Assembly: GCF_003865075.1 (NCBI RefSeq)
Contig: NZ_BHWB01000003.1
Span: forward strand, 186,001-250,000
Direction: 5' to 3'
DNA length: 64,000 nt
DNA from: Bacteroides faecalis
GTDB taxonomy: Bacteria; Bacteroidota; Bacteroidia; Bacteroidales; Bacteroidaceae
Shown here: positions 38,247-43,901 of the stretch, one piece after another
Numbering within the stretch: position 1 is the first letter of the stretch
How the letters are laid out: the number at the start of each line of letters is the position of its first letter
Translations under genes and position numbers: made by a program
Notes under the pieces: model-generated
What the model was told of the DNA's origin: nothing
The model's database searches: none
The model's input: only the letters and a program-made list of their open reading frames with translations

Positions 38247-38921
38247 ATGAAACTATTGATTATCGAAGACGAAAAAGAACTTTCAGGTAGTATTGCTACT
38301 TTTTTAAGTTCTGAAAATTATTTATGTAAACAAGCTTTCACTTTCGACGAGGCAATGGAAAAAATCAGTCTATACGATTACGACTGTATCTTGTTGGATT
38401 TAATGTTACCCGGCGGAAATGGATTGGATATTTTACATGAGATCAAACGTCTGAATAAAACTACAGGAGTCATTATTGTTTCGGCTAAAGATTCTCTGAA
38501 TGACAAGATAGTCGGACTTAAAATAGGAGCAGATGATTATTTATCAAAACCGTTTCATCTCCCTGAGTTAAGTGTACGCATTTATGCTCTCATTCGTCGC
38601 CAACAGTTTTCGAGTAATAATACGATGTGTAGCAATAATGTCTCTATTGATTTATTAAGTAAAGAAGTTCATATAAATAGTAATCACATTATATTGACGA
38701 AAACAGAATATGAATTACTTCTTTTCTTCATCGGGAATCGTAATAAAGTGATTTCCAAAAGTGCACTTGCCGAACATTTGAGCGGTGACATGGCTGATAT
38801 GTTAGATAATCAGGATTTTGTATATGCACATATCAAGAATCTAAAAGCCAAATTAGTCGAAGCAGGAGCACAAGATTGTATTAAAAATATTTATGGAACC
38901 GGATACAAATGGGTAGAATGA
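38247..38921 (+). CDS. OmpR-family response regulator
   Basis: A 224-residue two-domain regulator. The receiver domain has IIEDEKEL acidic residues, the phospho-acceptor D51 in CILLDLMLPGGNGL and the signalling SAKDS region with K at YLSKPFHLPEL. The winged-helix DNA-binding domain covers about 125-224 (LTKTEYELLLFFIGNRNKVI, NIYGTGYKWVE). It overlaps the histidine kinase start by the sequence ATGA, so the pair is a standard two-component operon. The 244 bp upstream hold no gene. Target genes are unknown. Confidence 0.92.
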   Translation: MKLLIIEDEKELSGSIATFLSSENYLCKQAFTFDEAMEKISLYDYDCILLDLMLPGGNGLDILHEIKRLNKTTGVIIVSAKDSLNDKIVGLKIGADDYLSKPFHLPELSVRIYALIRRQQFSSNNTMCSNNVSIDLLSKEVHINSNHIILTKTEYELLLFFIGNRNKVISKSALAEHLSGDMADMLDNQDFVYAHIKNLKAKLVEAGAQDCIKNIYGTGYKWVE

Positions 38922-40029
38922 AAAGTCTTTTGAATAAACCTCTGATGCAGTTTATTATTTGTGCAGTCATACTATTGTTAATAGCCACTCCCCTGTTCTA
39001 TTTTCTTGTAGAACATTATTATGCCGAAGATTTGATAGAAATAATGAATGCAGCGGAACAAGGCAATCCTTTACCCCCCCCTACTGATCTGGAAGAGGAT
39101 TTAATGATAGGAGTTGTATATCAATTCGTATTAATTGCCGGAGTACTGAGTATTTCGCTGGTTCTCATGATGAGATTGATTTCTAAACGTCTGTGGGTTC
39201 CTTTTGACGATACCCTTCATCGTATAGAACAATTTTCATTAGAAGGAGAGAATATACCTCAATTTATGCAGAGTGATATAAAAGAGTTTACCCGCCTGAA
39301 TAATGCCATTACTCAATTGATGAAAAAAATCTGGAAAGCTATAAATCACAGAAAGAGTTTACAGAAAATGCTTCTCATGAGTTGCAAACTCCTTTGGCTG
39401 TGTTTCAAAGTAAACTGGATCTGCTGTTACAACAATCCGAGATGACAAAAGAACAGGCTGAAATCGTTCAAACTTTATATGAAGTAACCAACCGCCTCTC
39501 ACGCTTAAACAGGAACCTGTTACTTCTTACCCGAATTGATAATCATCAATATAACCAAGTGGAACAAATCGATGCAGTCCAAACTTTAAGGGATATATTG
39601 CCATTAATGAACAAACTCACTGAAGGTATAACCGTATATACCGATCTGGAAGATTCATCCATGTTTATACAAGCCAATCAATCTTTGCTTGAAAGCTTGA
39701 TTAATAACCTAATTGTTAATGCAGTACGCCACAACATTAAAGACGGAAATATATTCATATCAATCAAAGAACGCCAGTTGATCATAGCCAACACTTCCGC
39801 TGAAGGTGAACTGCAAGAGAAGCTGCTATTTACCCGTTTTTATCGTCCTTCGGAGAAAATTAAGGGCAATGGTCTGGGACTAGCTATTGCAAAAGCAATC
39901 TGCGAATACCATGGATGGAGTATACATTATACTTATAGAAATAATATGCACCGGTTTACCGTATTCTTTGGAGCTTCCAATCAAACTTCCAATATATTCA
40001 AGAAACCTAATATATTTGTCTCTACATAA
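38918..40029 (+). pseudogene. Sensor histidine kinase, frameshifted
   Basis: The first frame encodes two membrane helices (LMQFIICAVILLLIATPLFY and VYQFVLIAGVLSISLVLMMR) around a short periplasmic loop, then leaves frame near 39323-39329. The second frame supplies the H-box ENASHELQTPLAVFQSKLDL and the ATPase domain with NNLIVNAVRHN and GNGLGLAIAKAICEYHG. One extra A in the A7 run at 39323-39329 restores a protein of about 370 residues. Partner of the upstream regulator. The 3' end overlaps a truncated epimerase on the other strand, so the last residues may be foreign to the family. Confidence 0.82.
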
Positions 40030-40379
40030 GCATAAGGATTTTCAATAGAGTAACGCACTCCTGCCTGTCCCGCTAAATTAATAACAAAATCAAAGTTCTC
40101 CACATCAAAAAGATGAATCATTCCGATATGGTCCGTCAAGTCCATTTTTATAAAACGATAAAGCGTTTCTGTCCGGCTAGTAATCATCTGATTGTCTTTA
40201 ATCATTTCTTGAGCTATACCTACTTCTGATAAACGTGCATATTTTAATCTCGTATCATAATAAGAATTGATGCAATCTAACCCTATAACTTCATAATGCT
40301 GTCCCAACAATGCTTTTACCACAAATGAACCTATAAATCCGGCAGCTCCCGTCACTAGTACTTTCATATACTTTTTCAT
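39981..40379 (-). pseudogene. UDP-glucuronate 4-epimerase, N-terminal fragment
   Basis: The 132-residue frame starts KVLVTGAAGFIGSFVVKALL, with the NAD motif GAAGFIG, and continues NFDFVINLAGQAGVRYSIEN and ETNILGFLNILE, then stops. Intact GAE/CapI-type enzymes are about 350 residues, so the catalytic YxxxK and C-terminal domain are missing. The loss point coincides with the 3' end of the histidine kinase gene on the + strand, with which it overlaps by 49 bp. This indicates a deletion junction. It is not expected to be active. Confidence 0.8.
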
Positions 40380-41020
40380 TTATAATATTACTATACCATA
40401 ATTACCACTCACATAACTTTGCTTCTCAATAATCACTTTTCTCAATGTATCCATTTCACGTATCGGTACTATCAAAATAGCATTATGCAGTTTCCCTTCA
40501 ATAATCTCTTCCCACGTAACAGTTTGTACCTCTTTTTGTAAATACACATCCATATTCTCCGGACGGGAAATCTGCCATGTATAATAGGTATAAATATGAG
40601 TCCCTGAATATCACTATTTTGCTCATCAGAAGATATTTCCACAGCCTTTTGGAAGGCATCAAGTGCCCGGGGAGTTTTACACATATCCATATAAACCCTA
40701 CCTAAATAATAATAGGCTGTTGTCAATTTTTCATAATCTTTTTTTTCTTTATAATACAAAACGACCTGCTTTATCAATGAATCAGAAGTATGCAATTCAT
40801 AGGATTTATCAGACGCTTTCACTAACAACAAATTATAATACATCTGTATATCAATAGGCTTCTTGTTAACTTCATGCTTTATCGATTTTAGAAAAGATAA
40901 TGCACTATCCGGTTTTTCTTTAATAATACGTTCTGCTAAAACTATTTCATCCGGATAAGATCTTCCACATCCACTACACAACAATACCCATACTACAATA
41001 TATAATAGACTTTGTCTCAT
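40380..41020 (-). pseudogene. TPR lipoprotein fragment joined to an out-of-frame remnant
   Basis: From 41020 the frame encodes a lipoprotein signal (MRQSLLYIVVWVLLCSGC) and TPR helices (YYYLGRVYMDMCKTPRALDA). Its normal-looking sequence ends near 40600. Beyond that, another frame gives protein-like sequence (WQISRPENMDVYLQKEVQTV, then WEEIIEGKLHNAILIVPIRE) to a stop at 40380-40382, just before the epimerase ATG. The first part resembles the N-terminus of TPR regulators such as the gene at 35002. The tail is not recognised. I read it as two truncated genes joined by recombination. Confidence 0.55.
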
Positions 41021-41138: not shown

Positions 41139-41485
41139 TTATTTAGAATCTATGTTATCGGAAATAAACTCTATTTTTATAGTAACATCCCCCAGCTCAG
41201 TATTATTCAATGGCAGTTGATACATTTCATTTTTCCCTATCTTCAGAGATGAGAAATAAACGACTTGCCCCTTCGAATCTTCGGCTTCAACTAAAATAGT
41301 TTTATCTACCGCCGAATACATTTCAACAATATCATTCGGCCTATTAACACGAATCACTACGCGATATCTGTTATCGTCAATCCACCACCCGCCCTGCTCC
41401 GGGAATTTTACTGGTTCTTCAGCCTTAGACGGAATGACACCAATAGCAATAATAACAATGCGAAAAATTTCTTTTTATTCTTCAT
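41139..41485 (-). pseudogene. DUF3244-like small secreted protein, frameshifted
   Basis: An ATG at 41485 begins MKNKKKFF. One added T in the T5 run (41463-41467) keeps the frame through IVIIAIGVIPSKAEEP, a signal peptide with SKA-E cleavage, into PEQGGWWIDDNRYRVVIRVN and VYFSSLKIGKNEMYQLPLNN. The resulting protein of about 115 residues resembles the DUF3244 immunoglobulin-like small proteins of Bacteroides. As written, only the last 72 residues are in one frame. The break is again a one-base loss in a homopolymer. Confidence 0.6.
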
Positions 41486-41693
41486 ACCACATTCTATTTT
41501 TTGTTTTTGTAAAATTGGTAAAAACGTGGCATTTTACAGTTAAAATTTTGTTCAGAAATTGTTCAATTCTTCTAAACACAAGATTTCCAGATAATAACAC
41601 ATAAAAGTATAAAATGAAATATTTCACTCATTAGCCAACAAATGTACAAAAGAAAAGTCATTCTATAGTTTCATAGAAACTCCCACAAACAAA

Positions 41694-41736
41694 AAGGTTG
41701 CAAAGTAACAAGTAACGCTTACTACTTCACAACCTT
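41694..41736 (-). terminator. Hairpin downstream of the small lipoprotein gene
   Basis: Arms 41694-41707 and 41723-41736 pair with two internal mismatches. An A5 run on the + side gives a T-run on the - strand. It lies 47 bp after the stop at 41783. Confidence 0.5.
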
Positions 41737-41782
41737 CATAATACGATCATCCATCATTTTTTTTCTGCACTCCATCAGTGGT

Positions 41783-42178
41783 CTATTCTTTTGGATAGAC
41801 AACAATCCAATTATTTTCCTCTAATTGCTTTTTAGTCAATTCATATCGTTCATAAAGATGATATTTTCTAATAGTATCAATTGCCAAAGTAGTATTTTCT
41901 GTATCTATAGCAAAAACTTGCATGATTGGATACTTCTTAAATAACTTTGTTCTTGACAAATAATAGGTATAATCTCTTTGATCATTCGGTCCTACAGAAA
42001 TACTATGTCCAAATTGAAACACAGTATCAGGATAATGTTCCCCCATGATAAATTCTATAGATTTGTCACTTCTATTTACGATAGTAATAAAAGGGTTTCC
42101 CCAACCTTCTTCCATTGAACATCTTGAAGCTGTTGCCACTAGAAACAATATACAAAATATAAAAAATATCTTTTTCAT
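41783..42178 (-). CDS. Small lipoprotein, possible immunity protein of the upstream Rhs tip
   Basis: A protein of 131 residues from ATG 42178, with a signal and lipobox (KKIFFIFCILFLVATASRCS). The mature part has NPFITIVNRSDKSIEFIMGE and ends in EENNWIVVYPKE. I do not recognise a family. It is the first gene after an Rhs-type C-terminal toxin-like fragment on the same strand, the standard position of a cognate immunity gene. A periplasmic lipoprotein would suit a toxin acting in the envelope. The immunity role is inferred only from position. The longer frame from 42250 uses TTG and lacks support. Confidence 0.55.
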   Translation of the reverse strand: MKKIFFIFCILFLVATASRCSMEEGWGNPFITIVNRSDKSIEFIMGEHYPDTVFQFGHSISVGPNDQRDYTYYLSRTKLFKKYPIMQVFAIDTENTTLAIDTIRKYHLYERYELTKKQLEENNWIVVYPKE

Positions 42179-42297
42179 AACATAATAGCCATTATAGATT
42201 TTAGACAAAATCGATACATGCAAGATAGTGATTTTCAAGAAAAAGAACAAAAGAAATGATGATAAAAGCCATTTCTTTTGCTCTTTTTTAACAATTA

Positions 42298-42980
42298 CTA
42301 TTTTCCATTAAAGTCTTGACTCTCAAAAGGAGAAATCAACATAAAGAAATTATACCATTTCGCACTAAAAGAGAGTGATTCTTTCAGTTGTTTCATTTGT
42401 TCACCATTTGCATAATCAACATACCTTTGGCCATCGGGAGTCCCATAAGGAACAAGTGGATTACCTTTAAAGTCCCATCCTTTTACATGTGGAGAATTCG
42501 AATTCCATTCATCTTTGCTCGTATAGAACCCTGTTACGTTTTTATTAAAATACTTAAATGCCCTATAATTGGCATCGCTCTCAAATGCTCTATATCTGTG
42601 CTTACCATCATTTTTACTTGCACTCAGCAAACTTGGAAATGCAACTCTAGAAAAATAGGACCAACCCATAGCTTGACTTTGCAAATAATGTCCATATTCG
42701 TGCTGGAAGGTACTGTTATTAGGATCAGCTCTAGTATCCTTATCACCAATAATCCAACTACCCATTGTGAAAGCTTCTCCATTTTTCATATTGGTTGTAG
42801 TCAATACAGTTGCTCCAAATTTCGTGTCCACATCTAAGACATTCCCAAATGTATTATACAAATGCGAAGCTACAAAACCGATCGTATTATTCAGTCCTTG
42901 GTAAGTAAATCTAGAAATGAATTCCCATGATTTCCCCCAAAAACTTTTATTTGAATCAAGTGCAAATAAACCTCCAATTT
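42298..42980 (-). pseudogene. Rhs/YD-repeat protein C-terminal tip with HExxH motif (5'-truncated)
   Basis: The frame is open from about 42980 and reads GGLFALDSNKSFWGKSWEFI, SRFTYQGLNNTIGFVASHLY, then FGATVLTTTNMKNGEAFTMG and PNNSTFQHEYGHYLQSQAMG. The last segment carries a zinc-metalloprotease HExxH motif. This order resembles the post-core C-terminus of Bacteroides Rhs repeat-associated proteins. The YD repeats and core are absent. The 5' end runs in another frame inside the truncated ArnT-like gene, so it has no start of its own and is an orphan tip. A small lipoprotein follows 119 bp downstream. Confidence 0.65.
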
Positions 42981-43901
42981 AGAACTGACAAAAGACAACA
43001 TTATAAAAGTAGTAATCAATACAGCCAGAAAGAACTTTTGCAGTTCTGTGTGAATCCAACCTTTTCTTATTGAAACTCCAATTACCCCTATTAATAATAA
43101 TGACCAGGGAAACATCGAATACCAGATAGAAACAAAATAATGATAGAAAGGTGCTTCATGGTGAAATGAATTGATTGCCTGGTCTACTGTTTGGTGAAAG
43201 AGTAAGTTTTGTAGATATTCACCTCCGGCTTCCCAATATACACAACCGAACCAAATAGTACATAATATTAAAAGAATACTCCATGTTTTCCAATTCCAAT
43301 AACGTCCCAAAGAACGTATACGCTTGGTCCATAGTAAGAAAACAAATGTACATAATAATGGTATTAGAATGCCTACAGGACCTTTCGTAAATATAGCCAG
43401 AAAAATATATATCGGAAATAAGATTGCATTTATTTGCTGATTACCCTTTCCTGTCAGCATTTTATAAAAGGTATATAGAGATAAAGTGATAAACATACAC
43501 ATCAATATATCCATCCGTAATACAAGAGTTGAACCTAGAAATAGTCCGCAACTAAGTAATAACAACTGACTGGTCAGCATATATTCCCTTTCTATTTTTT
43601 GTCGAGTCCAATCATTCATTATATGTACAATAACAAATGCCGGTATCAATGAAAACAGTGACAAGAATAACATGTAATGTGCTCCCAACAAATATTTTCC
43701 TAACATGACAATCCAAAAATACAAAGGAGGCTTATCAGCATAAGGAATTCCTTGATTGGTAAAGGTAAAAAAGGTTCCGTTACGTAAAGCTTCATCAGCA
43801 ATACTTAAATAACGGAGTTCGTTGCTAGGAGTATAATCTCGAAAAATCAAGATGGGTAACAAAGCCACTAAAATAAATATATATAAATAGTTAATTCTCA
43901 T
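42891..43901 (-). pseudogene. ArnT-like lipid-linked sugar transferase, 3'-truncated
   Basis: A GT-C membrane protein with typical features: LRYLSIADEALRNGTFFTFT, the YADKPPLYFWIVML motif after the first helix, and several transmembrane helices. Normal homologues are about 500 residues. Here the family sequence ends at FVSSKLEVY (about residue 317), and the last 19 residues (from HLIQIKVF) are read from the Rhs fragment in another frame. It probably glycosylated lipid A or a related glycolipid with a polyprenyl-phosphate sugar made by the upstream GT2. Its start overlaps the LAB_N gene by 11 bp. Confidence 0.75.

What the first reader, a model, noticed from the sequence alone, without database searches (positions are those of the whole stretch)
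41783..42980. Orphan Rhs tip with HExxH motif and adjacent lipoprotein
The fragment keeps the post-core region and a QHEYGHY zinc site, followed directly by a lipoprotein in the position of an immunity gene. It could be a displaced toxin cassette waiting to recombine with a full Rhs gene, or a metalloprotease-type effector whose lipoprotein partner protects the envelope.
Basis: partly seen in the sequence, partly recalled or inferred. Interest (0 to 1): 0.55.

Follow-up and report, generated by a model that had tools for sequence, protein, structure and literature searches.

The report
Broken Rhs toxin tip, intact lipoprotein
A stray piece of a bacterial weapon gene, the cut-off toxin tip of an Rhs protein with its probable antidote lipoprotein, lies inside another broken gene of a Bacteroides genome; the weapon looks dead here, but the same tip-and-antidote pair is widespread in related bacteria and has no named entry in the family libraries searched.

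Summary
Observation confirmed. Window 42298-42978(-) encodes a 226-codon Rhs tip with HEYGH, and 41783-42178(-) an intact 131-aa lipoprotein 119 bp downstream. In the genus Bacteroides 14 of 16 tip copies are in frame with an Rhs core; the exceptions are this one and one at a contig end. A homologous lipoprotein is the next gene for 14 of 15 other copies, and across 79 loci for 66 of 75 with room. Tip and lipoprotein distances co-vary beyond the Rhs core. AlphaFold gives a confident model whose nearest solved structures are weak zincin matches. Neither protein matched a named Pfam or NCBIfam family. So 'metallopeptidase effector with envelope immunity lipoprotein' is well supported for the family, untested at the bench. 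'Displaced cassette waiting to recombine' is not supported here: the fragment lacks the Rhs core end, a start codon and meaningful identity to resident Rhs genes. It is part of a roughly 2.4-kb fragment, cut inside rhs and a TPR gene, that replaced about 130 codons of an arnT-like gene. Best reading: toxin relic plus possibly working orphan immunity gene.

The parts
42298..42978 (-). Rhs C-terminal tip fragment, 226 codons, predicted zincin-type metallopeptidase domain; no start codon, in-frame TAA directly upstream
42688..42702 (-). HEYGH zinc-site motif (codons 93-97 of the tip)
   Evidence: H93, E94, G96, H97 invariant in 58 rows, Y95 at least 90%
42580..42582 (-). E133, probable third zinc ligand (E-x-D-A-N motif; assignment by inference from gluzincins, recalled)
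   Evidence: at least 90% conserved
41783..42178 (-). Lipoprotein P0002, 131 aa, candidate (orphan) immunity protein
42240..42288 (.). 19-bp inverted repeat, terminator-like by eye, between tip stop and lipoprotein start
   Evidence: z -4.35
41693..41737 (-). Terminator-like hairpin with T tract just after the lipoprotein gene
   Evidence: z -4.75
41139..41474 (-). Remnant of a small, probably secreted protein (no Pfam family above cut-off); the ATG nearby lies in another frame
40595..41020 (-). 5' part (142 codons) of a TPR protein gene, cut off at the second insertion junction
   Evidence: TPR_1 27.2 bits, just under its cut-off of 27.8
42963..43901 (-). 5' part of an ArnT-like glycosyltransferase gene (matches residues 1-314 of 517); host gene broken by the insert
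40383..40589 (-). 3' remnant of the same ArnT-like gene (residues about 445-517); residues about 315-444 are missing
39984..40379 (-). NAD-dependent epimerase gene cut after about 132 of 336 codons, next gene of the broken operon

Best explanation
The family: the C-terminal tip of Sec-exported Bacteroidota Rhs polymorphic toxins is a zincin-type metallopeptidase that acts in the envelope of competing cells, and the gene directly 3' encodes a lipid-anchored protein that protects the producer by binding the tip in the periplasm or at the cell surface. This copy: a roughly 2.4-kb piece of such a locus (Rhs 3' end, immunity gene, a small-protein gene, TPR gene 5' end) was inserted by illegitimate recombination into an arnT-like gene, with loss of about 130 arnT codons. 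The tip lost its core, export signal and start codon and is almost certainly not made as a toxin. The lipoprotein gene is complete, with its own start and a terminator-like hairpin, and may still act as an orphan immunity gene. Shown: anatomy, linkage, co-variation, conserved zinc site and lipid site, insertion in the arnT-like gene. Inferred: peptidase activity, envelope target, immunity by binding, mode of insertion, expression of the orphan gene.
For: Tip in frame with an Rhs core in 14 of 16 genus copies. Homologous lipoprotein gene next to 14 of 15 other genus copies. In 79 loci from genome contigs, 66 of 75 with at least 600 bp of room have it within 1.2 kb on the same strand; leaving out six loci that also trained the profile gives 60 of 69. 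78 profile hits lie in 89.6 kb next to tips against 27 in 826 kb elsewhere, none on the other strand. Co-occurrence: 14 of 15 tip genomes have it among 149, Fisher p 1e-14. Tip-lipoprotein distance correlation 0.43, 0.40 after removing Rhs-core distance, p 2e-4 (5000 permutations), n 39; tip-core only 0.19. Model pLDDT 90.5, pTM 0.89; the 16 entries listed in the second look are HExxH metalloproteins by title or recall, best BepA Z 5.6, rmsd 4.0, 133 aligned. Signal-peptide-like N-termini, by eye, on the 17 Rhs proteins printed. arnT parts on both sides of the insert. A second genus genome (G131) holds a 69-aa tip relic between two such lipoproteins.
Against: No function was tested. Fold matches are weak (Z below 8; Foldseek best E 0.84) and the second look only re-aligns Foldseek's own candidates. 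The lipoprotein also lies without any tip in 7 of 22 genus loci, with no Rhs motif of the patterns tried. 8 of 75 roomy tip loci show no lipoprotein hit at all. 31 of 79 tips sit in short ORFs not cut by an edge, 18 of them without a recognised core end, so tips outside full Rhs genes are common. Expression of the orphan gene is unproven: promoter-like hits were fewer than in shuffles and a hairpin separates it from the tip. With no close relative of P0002 (at most about a third identical) selection on it could not be measured. Its lipobox (ASRC) is not canonical and Pfam LPAM_1 scores below cut-off. The genome is rated 6.29% contaminated, so an assembly fault cannot be excluded.
Confidence: 0.75

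Rival explanations
1. Displaced Rhs-CT/immunity cassette kept as a silent reserve that can recombine onto a resident Rhs gene and re-arm the strain.
For: Such cassettes are established in Salmonella, may occur in this family (13 of 79 tips sit in short ORFs that keep a core end) and one is present in this genome at another locus, L051 4449-5207(-).
Against: This fragment starts about 36 aa after the Rhs-associated core of L030, so it lacks the shared segment; in 40 loci with a recognised core motif the motif lies 147-188 aa before HExxH, here only 92 codons are left. Best match to the six resident Rhs regions fetched E 0.33, 20-25 nt. It lies inside an arnT-like gene, not behind an rhs gene.
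Confidence: 0.08
2. Pure debris: both the tip and the lipoprotein are non-functional leftovers of a passing DNA fragment. It differs from the best explanation only in the fate of the lipoprotein gene.
For: The other genes of the insert and the two host genes that it touches are broken; no promoter signal above shuffles; no relative close enough to measure selection.
Against: The lipoprotein frame, lipidation cysteine, C-terminal YP motif and terminator-like hairpin are intact. Lipoproteins of the family without a tip recur in 7 of 22 genus loci, which fits retained orphan immunity.
Confidence: 0.35
3. The lipoprotein is not immunity but a general surface or chaperone partner of Rhs proteins, and HEYGHY is a processing peptidase of the Rhs protein itself.
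For: Most PVC-metallopeptidase domains are releasing peptidases in polymorphic toxins (PMC3482391); lipoproteins occur in tandem arrays, five in L034.
Against: Here the domain is C-terminal, at the toxin position, with little after it to release; the lipoprotein co-varies with the tip more than with the core (0.43 against 0.31); lipoproteins persist without Rhs.
Confidence: 0.12

Closest known systems
Tox-MPTase1-5 zincin tips of RHS polymorphic toxins (Zhang et al. 2012, PMC3482391; passages and one section read)
   Same: C-terminal HExxH metallopeptidase at the end of RHS proteins, Bacteroidetes included; predicted toxins
   Different: Of 58 members scanned against Pfam only stray weak hits came up, best E 0.0094; the paper's table lists no immunity protein for these tips, whereas here a conserved lipoprotein is linked
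Tpe-Tpi: VgrG2b C-terminal metallopeptidase and PA0261-type immunity (PMC6899460; passages read)
   Same: HExxH effector that acts in the periplasm; immunity protein is envelope-located, a lipoprotein in some species
   Different: T6SS spike fusion in Proteobacteria; the tip profile matched no solved structure better than E 0.71, a collagenase
TANFOR/BaCT polymorphic toxins of Bacteroidetes (PMC7073777; passages read)
   Same: Bacteroidetes polymorphic toxins with a 3' immunity gene; T9SS cargo genes enriched nearby. Here 4 of 5 tested 5' neighbours of the Rhs genes hit the T9SS type A sorting domain, 3 of them above its cut-off
   Different: TANFOR N-terminus and DNase tip instead of Rhs and metallopeptidase
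Orphan Rhs-CT cassettes of Salmonella (PMC3967940; abstract and passages)
   Same: Tip fragment without start or export signal, paired with an immunity gene
   Different: The Salmonella cassette shares 522 bp of 95% identity with the main gene and lies behind it; this one does neither
rAID orphan immunity genes of gut Bacteroidales (PMC12247911; abstract and section list)
   Same: Immunity genes kept without the effector
   Different: Here a lone gene with a toxin remnant; protection untested

Membership tests
Rhs polymorphic toxin (tip) | Tip joined in frame to an Rhs repeat core | tested here: met
   For the family: 14 of 16 genus copies; L030 matches TIGR03696 above cut-off. Not met by this copy, which has no core.
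Rhs polymorphic toxin (tip) | Adjacent cognate immunity gene | tested here: inconclusive
   Adjacency 66 of 75 and co-variation are shown; that the gene confers immunity was not tested
Zincin metallopeptidase | HExxH plus a downstream third ligand in a zincin fold | tested here: inconclusive
   HExxH invariant, E133 at least 90% conserved; nearest folds are zincins but Z is 5.6 at best
Tox-MPTase families or other Pfam/NCBIfam families | Match to a curated profile | tested here: not met
   No family for P0001 at E 1; among 58 members only stray weak hits: Reprolysin_3 E 0.0094 in 1, eCIS_core E 0.021 in 2
Tpe-Tpi | Periplasmic toxicity dependent on HExxH, relieved by an envelope immunity protein | not testable with these tools
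   Needs expression tests
Displaced Rhs-CT cassette (recombination reserve) | Shared core-end sequence with a resident Rhs gene | tested here: not met
   Core end absent; best match to the six resident Rhs regions fetched E 0.33
rAID orphan immunity array | Recombinase-associated array of immunity genes | tested here: inconclusive
   The lipoprotein is a single copy; no recombinase noticed among the ORFs of 38.5-46.5 kb, by eye only, not searched for
Bacterial lipoprotein | Signal peptide with +1 cysteine | tested here: met
   C20 in 59 of 59 rows; against it, Pfam LPAM_1 only E 0.12, below cut-off

The most novel reading that the evidence does not exclude
A phylum-wide, so far unnamed class of envelope-acting Rhs metallopeptidase toxins, distantly shaped like BepA/M48 peptidases that police outer-membrane protein assembly, attacks that assembly in rivals. 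Bacteroides cells counter it by keeping decapitated loci, as here and in G131, as orphan lipoprotein shields, possibly displayed on the surface.
Probability: 0.12. Interest if true: 0.7.

Novelty: new member of a known kind. Interest (0 to 1): 0.4.

Why it matters
If right, it adds a widespread metallopeptidase effector with a linked lipoprotein immunity family to the Bacteroidota polymorphic toxins; the 2012 survey's table listed no immunity partner for its RHS metallopeptidase tips Tox-MPTase1-5. It also gives two loci (this one and G131) where a toxin has been cut away and the antidote gene kept, a direct test case for orphan immunity. The locus itself is a relic, and it also records the breaking of an ArnT-like glycosyltransferase gene and its epimerase neighbour in this strain.

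Tried and rejected
Rejected: DUF3244 as name of the small fragment (recalled; Pfam gave no such match). Rejected: my first reading that the TPR gene was frameshifted many times; the odd frame is the 3' remnant of the arnT-like gene. ArnT itself is only a likeness: the best NCBIfam hit scores 75 bits against a cut-off of 567. Rejected: viral carriage; 18 pattern matches in viral contigs, none confirmed. PADLOC gave nothing for either protein; PHROGs was not searched. Foldseek against PDB gave nothing at E 0.001 or better for either model (best for the lipoprotein a thaumatin-like protein, E 0.0076 over 66 columns); the second look at the lipoprotein gave Z 6.9 at best, HGSNAT. Surface export signal: acidic residues at +3 to +6 are 31% against 14% further on in the mature protein, but only 19 of 59 rows have two or more; the B. 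fragilis signal is given as SDDDD (PMC5080379, passages), P0002 has CSMEEG; left open. Junction microhomology: the stretch GGAGGTTTATTTG at the arnT/Rhs junction reads as either parent, and Rhs of L039 shares 13 nt with it, but true parent sequences are not held, so it is inference. Print searches on the toxin pair; nothing in the listings names this tip-lipoprotein pair, but only titles and abstract starts of most papers were seen and the library lacks most subscription journals.

Rows dropped and limits: one of 79 loci without a single ORF (L140); four of 79 without 600 bp of room, and L079 counted as a miss by the rule although its lipoprotein frame overlaps the match end; 61 of 79 pairs usable, 41 with enough core, 39 after removing near-identical ones; alignment A3 took 57 of 79 loci; alignment A4 took 58 of 99 eligible lipoprotein frames, some from one locus; one search kept 80 of 188 confirmed stretches; one search scored at most 23 candidates a genome, so its counts are lower bounds; the tip was sought in 149 genus genomes, the lipoprotein in 158. 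The E of the G131 relic is for a database of only the tips in hand.

Full report
What is there. On the minus strand, 42298-42978 is an open frame of 226 codons with QHEYGHY in its middle, and 41783-42178 encodes a 131-aa protein with a lipoprotein-type N-terminus. The gap between them is 119 bp and holds a 19-bp inverted repeat; another terminator-like hairpin follows the lipoprotein gene. Each protein is the only match in this genome. Genomes of the same genus share contig lengths with records titled B. pyogenes, B. acidifaciens and B. timonensis, which places the genome in Bacteroides.

The tip belongs to Rhs proteins. In 149 genomes of the genus, 15 carry the tip, 16 copies in all. Fourteen copies are in frame with an Rhs core; the exceptions are this one and G005, at a contig end. 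A full-length example (L030, 2266 aa) matches the Rhs-associated core TIGR03696 at residues 1924-2003, just before the tip. The 17 Rhs proteins printed begin with signal-peptide-like N-termini (by eye), and a small protein often sits 5' of them; 4 of 5 such neighbours tested hit the T9SS type A sorting domain, three above its cut-off. In genome contigs 188 stretches encode relatives and 79 loci were kept; by title and recall all but about four of the 79 (L088, L097, L106, L145) read as Bacteroidota. 37 of 79 lie in frames of 900 aa or more, 10 run off an edge, 13 are short with a core end, 18 short without a recognised one, 1 has no single frame.

The lipoprotein goes with the tip. In the genus, a homologous lipoprotein gene is the next gene for 14 of 15 other tip copies. 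In the 79 loci, 66 of 75 with room have it within 1.2 kb on the same strand, or 60 of 69 without the six loci that also trained the profile; hits are dense beside tips (78 in 89.6 kb) and sparse elsewhere (27 in 826 kb), with none on the other strand. Presence co-occurs strongly: 14 of 15 tip genomes among 149, and 5 genomes with only the lipoprotein, Fisher p 1e-14. Pairwise distances of tip and lipoprotein correlate at 0.43, and at 0.40 after removing the Rhs-core distance (p 2e-4, 39 loci); core and lipoprotein correlate at 0.31, tip and core at 0.19. This is what a recombining tip with its own antidote should show. Against exclusivity: counting hits at E 1e-10 or better, the genus has 22 lipoprotein loci; 13 lie beside a full tip, 2 beside a tip relic (this one and G131), 7 beside none. 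One of those seven shows a bare HEFGH string elsewhere in the fetched stretch; none showed an Rhs motif of the patterns tried.

What the tip may do. In 58 aligned tips H93, E94, G96 and H97 are invariant and a glutamate 36 residues after the second histidine, in an E-x-D-A-N motif, is at least 90% conserved, a gluzincin-like pattern by recall. The AlphaFold model is confident (pLDDT 90.5, pTM 0.89). Foldseek found nothing significant; the second look placed BepA first (Z 5.6, rmsd 4.0, 133 aligned) and a Zn-dependent peptidase second (Z 5.2, rmsd 4.0, 129 aligned), then other HExxH proteins. This is weak but consistent. No curated family covers it, nor a solved structure by sequence. The lipoprotein model is a small, mainly beta fold behind the signal helix (pLDDT 85.7, pTM 0.72) with no telling match; its cysteine is present in 59 of 59 rows.

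Why this copy is a relic. The frame has a TAA directly before its first codon, and its first in-frame starts are TTG at 42861 and ATG at 42789, past the invariant S22, R23 and G34. Upstream DNA is the 5' part of an ArnT-like gene (residues 1-314); the 3' remnant of that gene lies at 40383-40589, next to a truncated epimerase gene. In four relatives the two genes are whole and adjacent. So about 2.4 kb replaced about 130 codons. The insert is cut inside rhs at one end and inside a TPR gene at the other. The six RHS-positive regions of this genome look like a different Rhs subfamily and share only chance-level matches with the fragment, although one of them, on contig C2, does carry a displaced tip cassette with the core end.

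Reading. Family: Rhs metallopeptidase effector with envelope immunity lipoprotein, working like the Tpe-Tpi pairs but not shown to be a member. This copy: decapitated toxin with an intact, possibly useful orphan immunity gene, comparable in idea to orphan immunity in gut Bacteroidales. G131 offers a second case: a 69-aa tip relic (best E 1e-10 against the tips in hand) between two lipoproteins of the family. Substrate, delivery and protection are inference.

Noticed in passing
L051 4449-5207(-) (own genome, contig C2): Displaced Rhs tip cassette that repeats the end of the core and the tip of the Rhs gene just upstream: an orphan cassette of another Rhs subfamily in this genome.
   Followed up: partly
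window 38909-40029: Histidine kinase gene (named by eye) split into two overlapping frames, 38909-39445 and 39382-40029, its 3' end running into the truncated epimerase gene.
   Followed up: no
L188 8864-10030 (G131): Two lipoproteins of the P0002 family flank a 69-aa remnant of a tip C-terminus: a second decapitated toxin with kept immunity genes.
   Followed up: partly
L044 8105-9545(+) and L045 6629-8069(-): Lipoprotein of the family lies between a 226-aa gene (no Pfam family, L044 copy tested) and a 95-aa ORF, beside a glycoside-hydrolase-like gene (by eye), in two genomes; no Rhs motif nearby.
   Followed up: no
L031 2576-3058(+), L042 2886-3350(+) and similar: Small secreted proteins with a T9SS type A sorting domain directly 5' of these Rhs genes.
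   Followed up: partly
L034 3035-6238(-): Tandem array of five immunity-like lipoprotein genes behind one Rhs gene.
   Followed up: no
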